Shown here in pieces: positions 1 through 4,907 of a DNA stretch of 46,214 bases; the stretch's first letter is position 1, and the number at the start of each line of letters is the position of its first letter. The DNA is from Desulfovibrio sp. DV (lineage in GTDB: Bacteria; Desulfobacterota; Desulfovibrionia; Desulfovibrionales; Desulfovibrionaceae): positions 1-46,214 of the forward strand of contig NZ_MLBG01000023.1 in NCBI RefSeq assembly GCF_001936595.1. The letters run 5' to 3'. The position numbers were made by a program, and so were the translations under genes. The notes below the pieces were generated by a model, which saw only the letters and a program-made list of their open reading frames with translations, was not told the DNA's origin and did no database searches.

Positions 1-245
1 CCCGCGACATCTATAACGCCGTCTATTCGCCCATCCACGCCCTGGCCAAGCTCGATATCAGCGCCGACGAGATTCCGACCGACCAGGGCTTTGCCACCCG
101 CCGGATGCTTTCCGACGCTAATTTGCCCGAGGAAGTCAGGAATTCCACCGCAATGCGGCAGTACACCGGCGGCTACGACTGTCTGGCCGGCTACAAGGAC
201 AGGACCTATCCGCTGATGGAACAGCCGGCGGCCATGGCCGGCTAA
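1..245 (+). CDS. anfD: Fe-only nitrogenase alpha subunit, C-terminal end (partial)
   Basis: Only the last 80 codons are in the window; the reading frame is open from base 3 to the TAA at 243-245. The visible part begins [20 protein letters not shown] and contains [16 protein letters not shown], which I recognise as the carboxyl end of the AnfD/VnfD catalytic subunit. AnfD carries the FeFe cofactor and, with AnfK and AnfG, forms the dinitrogenase component of the molybdenum-independent nitrogenase in the cytoplasm. The next gene starts 11 bases downstream and is anfG, then anfK, the normal anfDGK order. The iron-only rather than vanadium assignment rests mainly on AnfK. The cofactor ligands lie outside the window and cannot be checked. 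Confidence 0.9.
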
Positions 246-620: not shown

Positions 621-2009
621 ATGTCTTGCGAATTACAGGAAAAATCACGGGCAGGCGTCATCAATCCGATCATGACCTGCCAGCCGGCCGGGGCCCAGTT
701 CGTCAGCATCGGCGTGACAGACTGCATCGGCATCGTCCACGGCGGCCAGGGCTGCGTCATGTTCGTGCGCCTCTTATTCTCCCAGCACTTCAAGGAGAGC
801 TTCGAACTGGCCTCGTCGTCGGTGCACGAGGACGGCGCGGTGTTCGGGGCCTGCGGCCGGGTGGAGCAGGCCGTCGACGTCCTTTTAATGCGCTACCCCC
901 ACGTCAAGGTGGTGCCGATTATTTCCACTTGCTCAACCGAAGTCATCGGCGATGACATCGACGGCGTGGTCAGCAAGTTAAGCGCCGGCCTGCTCAAAGA
1001 AAAGTATCCCGACCGCGAGGTCCACCTCATCCCCATCCACACCCCGAGCTTTGTCGGCAGCATGGTCACGGGCTATGATCTGGCTCTTCGCGACTTCGTC
1101 ATGCACTTTGCAACCAAGACCGAACCAAACGGCAAGCTCAACCTCATCACCGGCTGGGTCAATCCGGGCGACGTCACGGCGCTCAAACACCTGCTGGCGG
1201 CCATGGACATCGAGGCCACGGTCCTTTTCGAGATCGAAAATTTCGATGCGCCGCTCATGCCCCACGGCAACCACGTGGCCCACGGCACCACCACCATCGC
1301 CGACCTGGCCGGCACGGCCAATGCCCTGGGCACCCTGGCCCTGAACCGCTACGAAGGCGGCAAGGCAGCGGCCTATCTGGAAAAAGAGTTCGGTATGCCG
1401 ACCATCGTCGGCCCAACACCCATCGGCATCCGAAACACCGACACGTTTCTGGCCAACCTCAAAAAGCTCACCGGCAAGCCCATCCCGCAGTCGCTTGTGC
1501 GCGAGCGCGGCATCGCCATCGATGCCCTGACCGATCTCACCCACATGTTTTTCGCGGAAAAGCGCGTGGCCATCTACGGCAACCCCGATCTGGTCATCGG
1601 GCTGGCGGAATTTTGCATCGACCTGGAGATGAAGCCGGTCCTGCTGCTCCTTGGCGACGACAACCCGGCCTACGCCCGGGACCCCAGGATCAAGGCGCTG
1701 ACGGAAAACGTCGATTGGGACATGGAGATCATAACCAACGCCGATTTCTGGGAAATGGAAAACCGCATCAAGAACGAAGGCCTCGAACTCGATCTGATCC
1801 TTGGCCATTCCAAGGGCCGGTTCATTGCCATCGACAACAACATCCCCATGCTGCGGGTGGGCTTTCCCACCTATGACCGGGCCGGCATGTACCGCCACCC
1901 GGTGGTCGGCTACGCCGGAGCCATCTGGCTGGCCGAGCAGATGGCCAATGTCCTTTTCACGGACATGGAGCACAAGCACAACAAGGAATGGATTCTCAAC
2001 ATGTGGTAG
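621..2009 (+). CDS. anfK: Fe-only nitrogenase beta subunit
   Basis: This 462-residue protein is the beta subunit that shares the P-cluster with AnfD and passes electrons to the FeFe cofactor. The length equals that of the Azotobacter AnfK I remember, and the sequence is close throughout (for example TCQPAGAQFVSIG, GGQGCVMFVRL, CSTEVIGDD, LDLILGHSKGRF). The three cysteines expected to bind the P-cluster are C20, C45 and C104. The protein lacks the long N-terminal extension of NifK, as expected for AnfK. An upstream GAAGGG can serve as ribosome site. Expression is normally driven by sigma-54 with AnfA from a promoter before anfH, which lies outside this window. Confidence 0.97.
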   Translation: MSCELQEKSRAGVINPIMTCQPAGAQFVSIGVTDCIGIVHGGQGCVMFVRLLFSQHFKESFELASSSVHEDGAVFGACGRVEQAVDVLLMRYPHVKVVPIISTCSTEVIGDDIDGVVSKLSAGLLKEKYPDREVHLIPIHTPSFVGSMVTGYDLALRDFVMHFATKTEPNGKLNLITGWVNPGDVTALKHLLAAMDIEATVLFEIENFDAPLMPHGNHVAHGTTTIADLAGTANALGTLALNRYEGGKAAAYLEKEFGMPTIVGPTPIGIRNTDTFLANLKKLTGKPIPQSLVRERGIAIDALTDLTHMFFAEKRVAIYGNPDLVIGLAEFCIDLEMKPVLLLLGDDNPAYARDPRIKALTENVDWDMEIITNADFWEMENRIKNEGLELDLILGHSKGRFIAIDNNIPMLRVGFPTYDRAGMYRHPVVGYAGAIWLAEQMANVLFTDMEHKHNKEWILNMW

Positions 2010-2036: not shown

Positions 2037-2086
2037 TCCCGGCCGCGCCGGCCAGGACCCGGGGGTCCCGGCCGGCGCGGCCGGGA
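2037..2086. repeat. Perfect 17-bp inverted repeat between anfK and the next gene
   Basis: Arm 2037-2053 is the exact reverse complement of arm 2070-2086. Inside the loop, 2055-2059 and 2064-2068 can pair for five more base pairs. No T-run follows on either strand, so it is not a standard Rho-independent terminator. It ends 14 bases before the ATG of the downstream gene, next to its ribosome site. It could protect the 3' end of anf mRNA, attenuate readthrough, or be a short palindromic repeat. Confidence 0.75.
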
Positions 2087-2099
2087 CAGGGAGGTGACG

Positions 2100-2747
2100 A
2101 TGCAGCGAAGAACCGAAATGGCGCCGGGAAGCAACGCACCACCCGGGCCGGTGGTGACCGGGCACGGGCGCAGGCTTCTCTATTTCTCGTACGGGGCCGA
2201 GATGCTCTCCAGCCGCATCCGGTCGCGCTGCGCCGCGCCCAAGGTGGTGGCCACGGCCAGACTGGCCGACCACCGCCTGGGCTTTTACGGCTACAGCCCG
2301 ATCTGGGACGGCGGCCTGGAAACCGTGCTGCCGGCCCCGGGCTGCGAGGTCTGGGGCGTGGTCTATGCGCTCAGTTTCTCCGATGCCGACAGCCTGGACA
2401 CCTGGCAGGGGGTGCGGCTTAACGGCACCGGCACGTATTTTCACTCCCCGGCCGAGGTGACGGACGGCCAGGGCACGGTGTATACTGTCCTCGTGTTTAA
2501 AAAGGATGTGCTTGGCGAACCGACCCGGCCAAGCCGCCCCTATCTCGACGCCATCGTTGCCGGAGCCCTGGAACACGGCTTGCCGCCTGCCTCCATCCAG
2601 TCGCTGCAGGACATGGCGTCAAAGCCGGCCGCCTACCCCGTGCCCAGGTTCGGCCTGGCCCGGCAGCCCGGGGTCCTCTCCGGCGAATCCTGCGCCGATT
2701 GCGGCAGCCTGGCCCCGCCCCGGACCGGCCGGCACAACCACGCCTGA
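2100..2747 (+). CDS. Gamma-glutamylcyclotransferase-fold protein with altered active site, in anf cluster
   Basis: The 215-residue protein has the GGCT (AIG2/BtrG-like) fold. LLYFSYGAEM at 26-35 matches the family loop (YFAYGSN in human GGCT). GCEVWGVVYAL at 81-91 and SLDTWQGV at 98-105 align well with human GGCT. The family's catalytic glutamate, in LDEQEGV of the human enzyme (Glu98), is Q103 here, and the SN of YGSN is AE. The C-terminus has a CxxC (ESCADCGS). I therefore infer a binding or accessory role rather than glutamyl cyclisation. ATG 2100 follows GGGAGGTGAC; an earlier in-frame start at 2028 would lie within the inverted repeat. It follows anfK on the same strand, so a role in Fe-only nitrogenase maturation is possible but unproven. 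Confidence 0.75.
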   Translation: MQRRTEMAPGSNAPPGPVVTGHGRRLLYFSYGAEMLSSRIRSRCAAPKVVATARLADHRLGFYGYSPIWDGGLETVLPAPGCEVWGVVYALSFSDADSLDTWQGVRLNGTGTYFHSPAEVTDGQGTVYTVLVFKKDVLGEPTRPSRPYLDAIVAGALEHGLPPASIQSLQDMASKPAAYPVPRFGLARQPGVLSGESCADCGSLAPPRTGRHNHA

Positions 2748-2772: not shown

Positions 2773-3270
2773 ATGTCCGAAGCAAAGCATCCCGGCCATC
2801 CCCATGGGGCCATGCGGCGAAAGGACCGGGAGATCACCGACCGAACCGCCATTGACGCCATCATCGACGCCGGCCGGGTCCTGTATCTGGCCCTGGCCGA
2901 TGACAACATCCCCTTCGTGGTGCCGGTCTTTTACGCCTATGACCACACGGGCCTTTTTTTTCATTGTGCCCGGGCCGGGACCAAGGTCCGCATCATGCAA
3001 CGCAATCCGGCAGTGAGCTTTGCCATTTCCCTGGATCACGGCGTGATCGAAAGCGACGCGGCCTGCGACTTCGAGGCGCGCCACCGCACGGTCATCGGCT
3101 TTGGCCGCACCGTTTTTATCACGGACGAAGCCGCCAAAATAGCAGCCCTGGACCGGATCGTGGCCCGCTTTACGCCGCAGCACTTCGACTACCCCAAGAC
3201 CAATCTGGCCGCCACGACCGTGGTGCGTATCGAAATAGACTCGGTCAAAGGCAAAACGCACGGCCTGTAA
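2773..3270 (+). CDS. Pyridoxamine 5'-phosphate oxidase-fold flavin-binding protein
   Basis: The 165-residue protein belongs to the PPOX / NimA-like split-barrel flavoproteins, which bind FMN, F420 or sometimes heme. Typical features are RKDREITDRTAIDAIIDAG near the N-terminus, LYLALADDNIPFVVPVFYAYD, and LFFHCARAGTKVRIMQRNP, the family's flavin-phosphate-contacting segment. The substrate cannot be told from sequence. The ATG at 2773 has a good ribosome site (AAGGAG, 7 bases upstream) and lies 25 bases after the GGCT-fold gene, so the two are probably co-transcribed, perhaps with anfDGK. A redox or oxygen-related role beside nitrogenase is inference only. No terminator precedes it. Confidence 0.85.
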   Translation: MSEAKHPGHPHGAMRRKDREITDRTAIDAIIDAGRVLYLALADDNIPFVVPVFYAYDHTGLFFHCARAGTKVRIMQRNPAVSFAISLDHGVIESDAACDFEARHRTVIGFGRTVFITDEAAKIAALDRIVARFTPQHFDYPKTNLAATTVVRIEIDSVKGKTHGL

Positions 3271-3428: not shown

Positions 3429-4907
3429 TTAGAATTTATACGACAGACCGAAGGAGACCTTCCAGGTGTCGCCGTTTCTGGACTGGTTGACCAGGGAATG
3501 GCCCCAGACGCTCTGCTGGAACTCGCCATGGGCCCAGCCGGTCTCGACCACGGCGGAGAGGTTCTCATAAATCATGTACTTGTTGTCGAAATTCACGCCA
3601 TAGACATGCTCGTTGATGGTCAGGTCGCGCCCCATCTGGAAATAGGGGTTGCTGCCCATGAGCGTATTGAGCGTGCGGATGGCCCGGGCGGAGTTGGTGC
3701 CGTTGACGAACAAAAACGTCAGGCGATGGGTGAGCTTCTGGACAAAGGAGACATCGTCGAGGGTGACGCCAAGGCCCCAGGAACCGACCGGGCTCATGCC
3801 CATGTTGGAGTTTTTGACCAACTCCTGGCTGTCGTCGAACAGGAAGCTGTTGCCGGGTCCCCAGTTGGGACGGATCATGGGCATCCGCTCGGAACCGTTT
3901 GCAGTCGAACCGTCTTCGCCGGTGGACCACCAGCCATAGGCCTTGGGCGTCAGGACATCCCAGCCGGTGTATTCCACGCCGGCATCCATGAACCAGCCGC
4001 TGCGATGGCTCTTTTTACGGTCGCTCTCGGCTCCTGCGCCATAGATCACGTCGGCGTAGAACTTCACGGGATCAAGAGCGCTGACTTCAAACGCGCCGCC
4101 GGCCCACCAGAAGGCGTTCTGGTCGTTTTTCCACAGCTTGGGCGTGGCATAGGTCCCGGCCGAGGTCAGGTTATCGGCGTAAAACGACGAATTCTGCTGG
4201 GAGCTTTTGAGCGTGAAGAGATTGGCGTCCTTGCCGGCCACAGCGACAGCGCCCCAGGGCGTGGCCTTGAAGCCGTCCAGGGTGATCGGCAGGGCCAGGA
4301 AATAGGCGTCGAGTTCGTCGGCCACCTGGGTGGTCGTCGTATCGTAGGTCCGGTTGGTGTCGATCAGCCGGCCATATCCGGCCATCACCGAAAGGGTCTT
4401 GTCGATGAGCGGAGCCTTGACGACAAGGGCGGCCATGCGGTCGCCAAACACCGGCGAACCGTAGAACATCTTGCTCTGCGGCAGGGCCACGTTCTGCAGG
4501 CCGGCCGTAACATCCACATCCGTGCAAGGCAGCTTGAACTGCAGATACGCTCCGTAGATCATAATGGCGACTTCCGGGTTGGCGGCAGTGAACGTGCCGT
4601 GTCCCCAGGTGTCCTCCACCTTCATTTCCAGGCGGAACTTCACGGCCTCGTTGGCCACAAAGTCCGTGCGCAACCGGAACCGCTCCCAGATTTCAAAGGC
4701 TTCCTCGGTTTTCTTGCCGGCCTTGCTCCAGGTCGGTGTGGCGGAGGTCCAGGCCGGAGCGTTCCAGCCGGTGAAATTGCGGTTGGAGAAAAACGATCCG
4801 TAGACCAGGGCGTCGCCCACCATGCGCACTTCCGTGGCCGCCAAAGCCGCCGTGGCCATGGCCAGGACGAGAAACACCGCCAAAACCGAGATGCGTGTTT
4901 GTTTCAT
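3429..4907 (-). CDS. Outer-membrane homotrimeric porin (Desulfovibrio type)
   Basis: The 492-residue protein has a signal peptide (MKQTRISVLAVFLVLAMATA, cleavage near ALAA-TEV), many alternating aromatic/hydrophobic beta strands, and a C-terminal phenylalanine (LSYKF) typical of outer-membrane beta-barrels. Its size and the early segment VRMVGDALVYGSFFSN fit the abundant porins of Desulfovibrio that form general diffusion trimers. ATG 4907 follows AGAGGAAGGGAG. It is monocistronic: a terminator lies directly downstream and an AT-rich region of about 850 bp lies upstream. Such porins are usually highly expressed and regulated; the long leader may hold the control sites. Pore selectivity cannot be read from sequence. 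Confidence 0.88.
   Translation of the reverse strand: MKQTRISVLAVFLVLAMATAALAATEVRMVGDALVYGSFFSNRNFTGWNAPAWTSATPTWSKAGKKTEEAFEIWERFRLRTDFVANEAVKFRLEMKVEDTWGHGTFTAANPEVAIMIYGAYLQFKLPCTDVDVTAGLQNVALPQSKMFYGSPVFGDRMAALVVKAPLIDKTLSVMAGYGRLIDTNRTYDTTTTQVADELDAYFLALPITLDGFKATPWGAVAVAGKDANLFTLKSSQQNSSFYADNLTSAGTYATPKLWKNDQNAFWWAGGAFEVSALDPVKFYADVIYGAGAESDRKKSHRSGWFMDAGVEYTGWDVLTPKAYGWWSTGEDGSTANGSERMPMIRPNWGPGNSFLFDDSQELVKNSNMGMSPVGSWGLGVTLDDVSFVQKLTHRLTFLFVNGTNSARAIRTLNTLMGSNPYFQMGRDLTINEHVYGVNFDNKYMIYENLSAVVETGWAHGEFQQSVWGHSLVNQSRNGDTWKVSFGLSYKF

What the first reader, a model, noticed from the sequence alone, without database searches (positions are those of the whole stretch)
2100..2747. GGCT-fold protein behind anfDGK with the catalytic glutamate replaced
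The sequence aligns with human gamma-glutamylcyclotransferase over GCEVWGVVYAL and LDTWQGV, but the catalytic Glu (Glu98 in the human LDEQEGV) is Gln103 and the YGSN loop is YGAE. A dead or re-purposed GGCT fused to an Fe-only nitrogenase operon suggests a new accessory factor, for example a cofactor or subunit chaperone. The C-terminal CxxC could help bind metal.
Basis: partly seen in the sequence, partly recalled or inferred. Interest (0 to 1): 0.8.

Follow-up and report, generated by a model that had tools for sequence, protein, structure and literature searches.

The report
Iron-nitrogenase helper AnfR, a dead cyclotransferase
The gene behind the iron-only nitrogenase genes is AnfR, a helper protein known by name for decades but of unknown function; it turns out to have the shape of a glutathione-breaking enzyme whose key catalytic residue has been lost, which suggests that it now works as a non-enzymatic assembly factor for this nitrogenase.

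Summary
Window 2100-2747 encodes a 215-aa GGCT-fold protein right behind anfG and anfK, with Gln103 where human GGCT has catalytic Glu98. It is not a new factor: it is the ortholog of Azotobacter vinelandii AnfR (46% identity, same Gln), whose mutants grow poorly on N2 and whose role is unexplored (PMC9310841).

New within the papers searched: AnfR is a GGCT-fold family that has lost the catalytic Glu. In 39 AnfR the site is Q25 H4 V3 E2 W1 C1 S1 A1 L1; in 51 ordinary GGCTs it is Glu in 50. AnfR has its own loop motif (39 of 39; controls 0 of 51) and a C-terminal Cys pair (36 of 39; controls 0 of 51). In 395 genomes of the phylum the 8 with anfG are exactly the 8 with AnfR. Of 80 anf loci from many phyla 31 carry AnfR; elsewhere an unrelated HEPN-like protein often takes the slot, never both (29/0/28/12 of 69).

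Most likely AnfR is a non-catalytic maturation or fidelity factor of the FeFe protein. Homocitrate as its ligand is untested and not supported by nifV linkage.

The parts
3..245 (+). anfD, last 80 codons (window starts inside the gene)
   Evidence: ORF open at the window's start, directly before anfG; an AnfD piece (TIGR01861 865 bits) lies on contig C120 of the same genome
257..607 (+). anfG, Fe-only nitrogenase delta subunit
   Evidence: TIGR02929 183 bits, cut-off 124.7
621..2009 (+). anfK, Fe-only nitrogenase beta subunit
   Evidence: TIGR02931 923 bits, cut-off 853.85
2037..2086 (+). RNA hairpin between anfK and anfR (22 pairs)
   Evidence: gap folded as RNA, z -4.6; the gaps of three relatives (two of them folded in part) give z -3.2, -2.4, -4.0
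2100..2747 (+). anfR: GGCT-fold protein without catalytic Glu
2190..2201 (+). codons Y31-E34, the YGSN-type substrate loop (YGAE here)
   Evidence: alignment with human GGCT and A2: Y31 invariant, G32 nearly so
2406..2408 (+). codon Q103 at the place of catalytic Glu98 of human GGCT
2415..2441 (+). codons R106-F114, AnfR-specific loop [RK]x[DN]GxGx[YH]F (RLNGTGTYF here)
   Evidence: motif in 39 of 39 AnfR, 0 of 22 and 0 of 29 ordinary GGCTs
2691..2702 (+). C-terminal Cys pair CADC (C198, C201)
   Evidence: CxC or CxxC in 36 of 39 AnfR, 0 of 22 and 0 of 29 ordinary GGCTs
2773..3270 (+). PNPOx-family gene next in line, short relative of Anf3
   Evidence: PF12900 76.8 bits; 26% identity to A. vinelandii Anf3 over 117 aa

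Best explanation
The gene is anfR. Its product is a GGCT-fold protein that has most likely given up cyclotransferase chemistry and kept the barrel with a rebuilt pocket loop. It most likely acts without catalysis as a maturation or fidelity factor for the Fe-only nitrogenase component (FeFe protein), at the stage where AnfO acts and where NifB-co plus homocitrate is thought to be completed inside the immature AnfDK protein. Shown here: orthology to AnfR, the fold, loss of the Glu, one AnfR clade, co-occurrence with anf in two genome samples of the window's phylum, and an unrelated HEPN-like protein in the same operon slot of other lineages. Taken from papers: anfR mutants grow poorly on N2, keep some acetylene reduction and show no apparent N2 reduction. 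Inferred: that AnfR is non-enzymatic, that it acts on FeFe protein maturation, and that the pocket and the Cys tail bind a ligand or cluster. The first two rivals below are more specific forms of this reading.
For: 46% identity to A. vinelandii AnfR over 180 aa, E 1e-55, same Gln and loop; that gene sits directly behind AnfO (PF09582, 172 bits), as published for anfR (PMC9310841, discussion section read). Fold. Glu absent in 37 of 39 AnfR, present in 50 of 51 ordinary GGCTs (22 of 22, taken from the listed loci; 28 of 29). AnfR clade support 99/99 (99/98 with two paralogs added). 395 genomes of the phylum: 8 with anfG over the cut-off (3 more with weak matches below it), the same 8 with AnfR at 236-278 bits, every other listed match at most 96.1 bits. 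59 relatives: anfG in 4, AnfR in the same 4 and in G018. 11 of 11 Thermodesulfobacteriota loci among the 80 carry AnfR. AnfR and the HEPN-like protein never co-occur: 29 / 0 / 28 / 12 of 69 loci. Mutant phenotype: PMC9310841.
Against: AnfR is not universal: 31 of 80 anf loci (29 of 69 with at least 3 kb of downstream sequence), and 12 of those 69 have neither AnfR nor the HEPN-like protein. In 11 genomes searched whole whose anf locus lacks AnfR, 10 have none anywhere. A reconstruction in E. coli did not seem to need anfO or anfR (PMC8085987, passage). Two anf-linked AnfR have Glu (L065, L081), so an active enzyme is not excluded in every member. G018 has an AnfR (Trp at the site, no Cys pair) but no anfG. 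I found no biochemistry of AnfR in the papers seen. The slot exchange follows lineages (6 changes for each label on the AnfK tree), so its weight is less than the Fisher value.
Confidence: 0.6

Rival explanations
1. AnfR is a homocitrate (or homocitrate-lactone) carrier. The GGCT pocket, built for a gamma-glutamyl group that closes to 5-oxoproline, is re-used to hold homocitrate, whose gamma-lactone is the oxygen analogue of that ring, and places it on NifB-co inside immature FeFe protein.
For: Homocitrate attachment is thought to occur within immature FeFe protein without a scaffold (PMC11938142, passages and discussion). anfR loss keeps acetylene reduction but not N2 reduction (PMC9310841); nifV mutants of the Mo system keep acetylene reduction and reduce N2 poorly (PMC6934396, passages). 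In 3 of 3 Pelosinus anf loci anfR directly follows two nifV-type homocitrate synthase genes (those scanned lie below the NCBIfam cut-off, as half-matching proteins). 5-oxoproline is a known ligand of the fold (title of 3juc). The ring analogy is from general chemical knowledge, not from a call.
Against: nifV within 6 kb is not enriched with AnfR: 3 of 29 AnfR loci against 5 of 40 others, Fisher p = 1.0. The same phenotype follows from a wrong cofactor in FeFe protein. A HEPN-like stand-in would not be expected to bind homocitrate (inference).
Confidence: 0.15
2. AnfR is a second cofactor gatekeeper beside AnfO: it shields immature FeFe protein from FeMo-cofactor or FeV-cofactor, with the Cys tail catching the cluster.
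For: The authors of PMC9310841 suggest one process for anfO and anfR. This genome has NifD, NifK, NifE and NifN-type proteins (domain pieces scanned, NifE over its cut-off, the others with the Mo-system or NifEN models as best match but below cut-off), so it should have FeMo-cofactor, yet no AnfO (best PF09582 match 10.2 bits, cut-off 30.3). C-terminal Cys pair in 36 of 39. AnfO and AnfR are negatively associated over 69 loci: 14 both, 15 AnfR only, 32 AnfO only, 8 neither, p = 0.009 uncorrected for phylogeny.
Against: 14 of 69 loci have both, so they are not simple substitutes. In AnfO a His, not the Cys residues tested, is needed (PMC11938142, passage). AnfR is not mentioned in that paper (0 occurrences).
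Confidence: 0.25
3. AnfR is a sensor of nitrogen state: the dead pocket binds glutamine or another gamma-glutamyl compound and modulates FeFe protein.
For: The fold binds gamma-glutamyl groups (PMC7022552, one section read). In the 8 Bacillota anf loci with AnfR a class-I glutamine amidotransferase gene (in pieces in L081) follows it.
Against: That amidotransferase also lies in anf loci without AnfR (L034, L041, L058, L066, L089, L094, L097). The published phenotype concerns N2 reduction, not regulation.
Confidence: 0.07
4. AnfR is an active enzyme with a shifted catalytic residue, for example an acid in the new loop, cleaving a gamma-glutamyl compound in Fe-nitrogenase cells.
For: Glu at the site in L065 and L081 and in the two paralogs away from anf. 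Residue 108 in the loop is D32 N7. Human ChaC2 was proposed to have two alternative Glu residues (PMC7022552).
Against: The old site holds nine different residues in 39 sequences, which does not look like a conserved catalytic group; in GGCTs this Glu is the general acid/base.
Confidence: 0.12

Closest known systems
AnfR of Azotobacter vinelandii (Anf2 of Rhodobacter capsulatus is called its homologue in PMC6579470)
   Same: Orthologous: 46% identity, operon position behind the anf structural genes, Gln at the GGCT Glu site, C-terminal Cys pair
   Different: In the window anfO does not lie between anfK and anfR, and no AnfO was found in the genome
Gamma-glutamylcyclotransferase GGCT (human C7orf24, PDB 2pn7, 3cry, 2rbh, 2i5t)
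   Same: Fold (TM 0.83 by target), Tyr-Gly loop, LD before the catalytic site
   Different: No Glu at the site, inserted loop motif, WDG motif, C-terminal Cys pair
AnfO
   Same: Neighbour in many anf operons; mutant phenotypes of anfO and anfR are described as alike in PMC9310841
   Different: A two-domain protein of another family (PF09582), to which AnfR shows no match; not found in this genome
Anf3 (PDB 6rk0)
   Same: The gene after anfR in the window is a PNPOx-family relative (6rk0 is its third PDB match, E 6e-10)
   Different: 165 aa instead of about 225; best PDB match is a nitroimidazole-resistance protein, 2fg9, E 7.5e-17

Membership tests
AnfR | Sequence orthology to A. vinelandii AnfR | tested here: met
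   46% over 180 aa, E 1e-55; one clade with it, support 99/99
AnfR | Encoded downstream of the anf structural genes | tested here: met
   90 bp behind anfK
AnfR | Encoded directly behind anfO, as in A. vinelandii | tested here: not met
   No anfO between anfK and anfR and none found in the genome. Not a family-wide feature: 15 of 29 AnfR loci lack a strong AnfO match
AnfR | Needed for good N2-dependent growth with Fe-only nitrogenase | not testable with these tools
   Reported for A. vinelandii in PMC9310841
GGCT enzyme | GGCT fold | tested here: met
GGCT enzyme | Catalytic acid/base Glu (Glu98 in human GGCT) | tested here: not met
   Gln103; Glu in 2 of 39 AnfR, 50 of 51 controls
GGCT enzyme | YGSx substrate loop | tested here: inconclusive
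   YGAE here; over 39 AnfR the third position is S22 A10 and others, the fourth N26 D7 and others
GGCT enzyme | Cyclotransferase activity | not testable with these tools
   needs a bench assay
AnfO | PF09582 match | tested here: not met
   No match in hmmscan at E up to 1

The most novel reading that the evidence does not exclude
AnfR is a pseudo-cyclotransferase turned into a homocitrate-lactone carrier: it reads homocitrate as a mimic of 5-oxoproline and sets it on NifB-co inside immature FeFe protein, so that Fe-only nitrogenase makes its cofactor without the NifEN scaffold; lineages without AnfR use an unrelated HEPN-like protein for the same step.
Probability: 0.12. Interest if true: 0.88.

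Novelty: new variant of a known kind. Interest (0 to 1): 0.6.

Why it matters
AnfR is a named but unexplained Fe-only nitrogenase gene. Fe-only nitrogenase is described as a favoured target for moving nitrogen fixation into other organisms (PMC9310841, passage). Knowing that AnfR is a cyclotransferase-type fold without its catalytic residue gives a concrete idea of what to assay: ligand binding in a known pocket, a Cys tail, and an unrelated protein that may replace it. That makes the question of how the FeFe-cofactor is completed without a scaffold directly testable.

Tried and rejected
That the gene is a new, unnamed factor: rejected when the profile rang at the A. vinelandii anfR position. 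That Gln itself is the selected residue: rejected, nine residues occur. That Glu was lost once and for all: not so; four AnfR-family members with Glu lie in the Bacillota branch (L065, L081, L152, L153); retention and regain cannot be told apart. That nifV linkage proves a homocitrate role: rejected, 3 of 29 against 5 of 40. That AnfO and AnfR replace each other: only a negative trend. That AnfR is a general anf gene: rejected, 31 of 80. A search of plasmid records gave 11 of 72,556 with a match, 28-38% identical and covering at most 79% of the query, none at AnfR level. The leuA gene beside the second Pelosinus copy (L153) was judged too thin to use. A pocket analysis on model coordinates was not possible, since only a summary of the model is returned.

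Limits of the counts. The 80 loci are the best 80 of 303 AnfK-related matches, so loci with more distant AnfK, among them that of Rhodobacter capsulatus, were not sampled. Rows dropped before the Glu count: four loci that duplicate first-round loci, judged by equal contig lengths (L028, L030, L031, L033), and one incomplete extra fragment of L086; L020, which is not at an anf locus, was kept. For the slot test 11 of 80 loci with less than 3 kb downstream were left out. L046 had a chance AnfO match (E 0.002), counted as AnfO but not. Control exception: L183 (Ala), perhaps a misalignment; L164, an intermediate GGCT of 125 bits with Glu, is counted among the controls. The Alphaproteobacteria sample (class name recalled; 337 genomes) was not searched for anfG except G549, so it does not test co-occurrence. 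In the large samples only the top candidates of the first look were scored in each genome. For the second tree six long-branched GGCT rows were left out, and the tree program warned that long branches meet. The AnfK tree is a quick one.

Full report
What is there. The window opens with the end of anfD, then anfG (257-607), anfK (621-2009), the GGCT-like gene (2100-2747) and a PNPOx-family gene (2773-3270), all on the + strand. The 215-aa protein matches Pfam AIG2_2 over its cut-off and human GGCT in the PDB at E 1e-17. An AlphaFold model made from 26 aligned sequences (pLDDT 82.3; residues 18-22 and 185-205, the Cys pair included, are under 50) matches human GGCT at Foldseek E 1e-15 and TM 0.83 by target. 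The gene is under purifying selection (dN/dS 0.34, 0.43, 0.45 against three relatives). There is no second copy in the genome at E up to 1.

Which gene it is. A scan of public genomes with an AnfK alignment gave 80 anf loci, the best 80 of 303. A profile of the first twelve GGCTs rang downstream of anfK in 31 of 80, among them Azotobacter vinelandii, where it names the ORF directly behind AnfO (PF09582, 172 bits). That is the published place of anfR (PMC9310841, discussion read). The window protein and A. vinelandii AnfR share 46% identity over 180 aa and both have Gln at the Glu site. anf2 of Rhodobacter capsulatus is described as homologous to anfR (PMC6579470, passages). So the window gene is anfR.

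Loss of the catalytic Glu. Over 39 AnfR sequences (12 first-round, 27 from the 80 loci after removing four duplicates and one incomplete fragment) the site is Q25 H4 V3 E2 W1 C1 S1 A1 L1; in the window's phylum it is Q15 W1 C1 S1 A1 of 19. In ordinary GGCTs found by the same profile it is Glu in 22 of 22 from the window's phylum and 28 of 29 from an Alphaproteobacteria sample. GGCT-fold enzymes use this Glu as general acid/base (PMC7022552, one section read). AnfR has features that the 51 controls lack: a WDG motif (37 of 38 readable rows; controls 0 of 51), the loop [RK]x[DN]GxGx[YH]F right after the lost Glu (39 of 39; 0 of 51) and a C-terminal CxC or CxxC (36 of 39; 0 of 51). AnfR is one clade (support 99/99). 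The Glu-bearing exceptions, two anf-linked Desulfosporosinus proteins and two paralogs away from anf (Sporomusa L152, Pelosinus L153), all sit in the Bacillota branch.

Linkage. In 395 genomes of the phylum, anfG over its cut-off occurs in 8 (3 more weak matches lie below it) and AnfR-level matches (236-278 bits) in the same 8; 33 other genomes have only ordinary GGCTs of at most 96.1 bits. In 59 relatives, anfG is in 4 and AnfR in the same 4 plus G018, whose AnfR stands alone near a contig end, has Trp at the site and lacks the Cys pair. In 337 genomes of the class of Telmatospirillum only the anf-bearing centre genome reached AnfR level; one genome has an intermediate GGCT (125 bits, Glu present) and no anfG; the rest were not searched for anfG. 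Of 20 anf genomes that I chose for a whole-genome search, 19 are held; 9 have AnfR-family matches, 8 of them at the anf locus (Pelosinus JBW45 with a second copy elsewhere), and Sporomusa KB1 only elsewhere; the other 10, all with an anf locus without AnfR, have none. All 11 Thermodesulfobacteriota loci among the 80 carry AnfR.

What replaces it. In 69 loci with at least 3 kb behind anfK, AnfR is present in 29, an unrelated protein (132-165 aa in the 11 aligned) in 28, both in none, neither in 12 (Fisher 3.5e-10 without correction for relatedness). On a quick AnfK tree each label needs 6 changes, so the exclusion rests on few independent events, for instance Pelosinus (AnfR) beside Sporomusa (the other). 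Six of 11 members scanned match the HEPN domain of Pfam at E up to 1, at least one over the cut-off (P0008, 24.1 bits, cut-off 22), while P0007 has no match; P0007 has no PDB sequence match at E up to 1. HEPN-like is therefore a lead, not a firm family. AnfO is not exclusive with AnfR: 14 loci have both, 15 AnfR only, 32 AnfO only, 8 neither. A PNPOx-family gene lies within 6 kb behind anfK in 60 of these 69.

How it most likely works. PMC9310841 reports, citing earlier work that I could not read, that anfR loss gives poor growth on N2, some acetylene reduction and no apparent N2 reduction, and suggests that anfO and anfR act in one process. AnfO holds apo-FeFe protein and captures FeMo- or FeV-cofactor, while the FeFe-cofactor is thought to be finished inside FeFe protein by adding homocitrate to NifB-co, without a scaffold (PMC11938142, passages and discussion; AnfR has 0 occurrences there). 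A barrel that lost its general base, kept a rebuilt pocket loop and gained a Cys tail fits a binding role at this stage; this is inference. The window's genome adds a point: it has proteins that match NifD, NifK, NifE and NifN-type models best, so FeMo-cofactor should be made, yet no AnfO was found; AnfR may be its safeguard. The boldest form, AnfR as homocitrate-lactone carrier, is chemically attractive, and in three Pelosinus loci anfR follows homocitrate synthase genes, but nifV is not enriched with AnfR in general (3 of 29 against 5 of 40).

What is known. Searches for gamma-glutamylcyclotransferase with nitrogenase (2 papers, listing only, by title about other subjects), AnfR with nitrogenase (3 papers, passages read in all three), cyclotransferase with Fe-only nitrogenase (none) and HEPN with nitrogenase (3 papers, listing only, by title about other subjects) found no statement that AnfR is a GGCT-fold protein or that a HEPN-like protein belongs to anf operons. 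These cover open-licence PMC papers only. NCBIfam gave no match for the window protein at E up to 1.

Verdict. The pseudo-enzyme identity, the AnfR motif, the exceptions with Glu and the HEPN-like stand-in appear to be new, as far as these searches reach.

Noticed in passing
L060:11474-11869, L082:11419-11844 and 26 further loci of the 69: A conserved HEPN-like small protein fills the slot behind anfK in many anf loci that lack AnfR; never found together with AnfR in 69 loci.
   Followed up: partly
window 2773-3270: PNPOx-family gene behind anfR, a short relative of Anf3; its FFH segment aligns with the segment of Anf3 that holds the heme ligand His70. It may be a small flavocytochrome or a flavin-only stand-in.
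   Followed up: partly
window 2037-2086: Strong RNA hairpin between anfK and anfR (z -4.6); the same gap, folded whole or in part, gives z -3.2, -2.4 and -4.0 in three relatives. It may stabilise the anfHDGK message or lower anfR expression.
   Followed up: partly
L083:15449-16159 and other Bacillota anf loci: A class-I glutamine amidotransferase gene lies between anfR and the Anf3-type gene in Bacillota anf operons, and also in anf loci without anfR.
   Followed up: partly
L083:11543-14832, L064 and L078 likewise: In Pelosinus nifB and two nifV-type homocitrate synthase genes lie between anfK and anfR.
   Followed up: yes
L153:8489-9043, L152:8657-9226: AnfR-family paralogs away from anf keep the Glu together with the AnfR loop and a Cys pair; the Pelosinus one is tail to tail with leuA.
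   Followed up: partly
L020:730-1308: Orphan AnfR in a genome without anfG, near a contig end, with Trp at the Glu site and no Cys pair.
   Followed up: partly
window 3429-4907: ORF on the - strand behind the operon that looks by eye like an outer-membrane porin; no family search was made.
   Followed up: no
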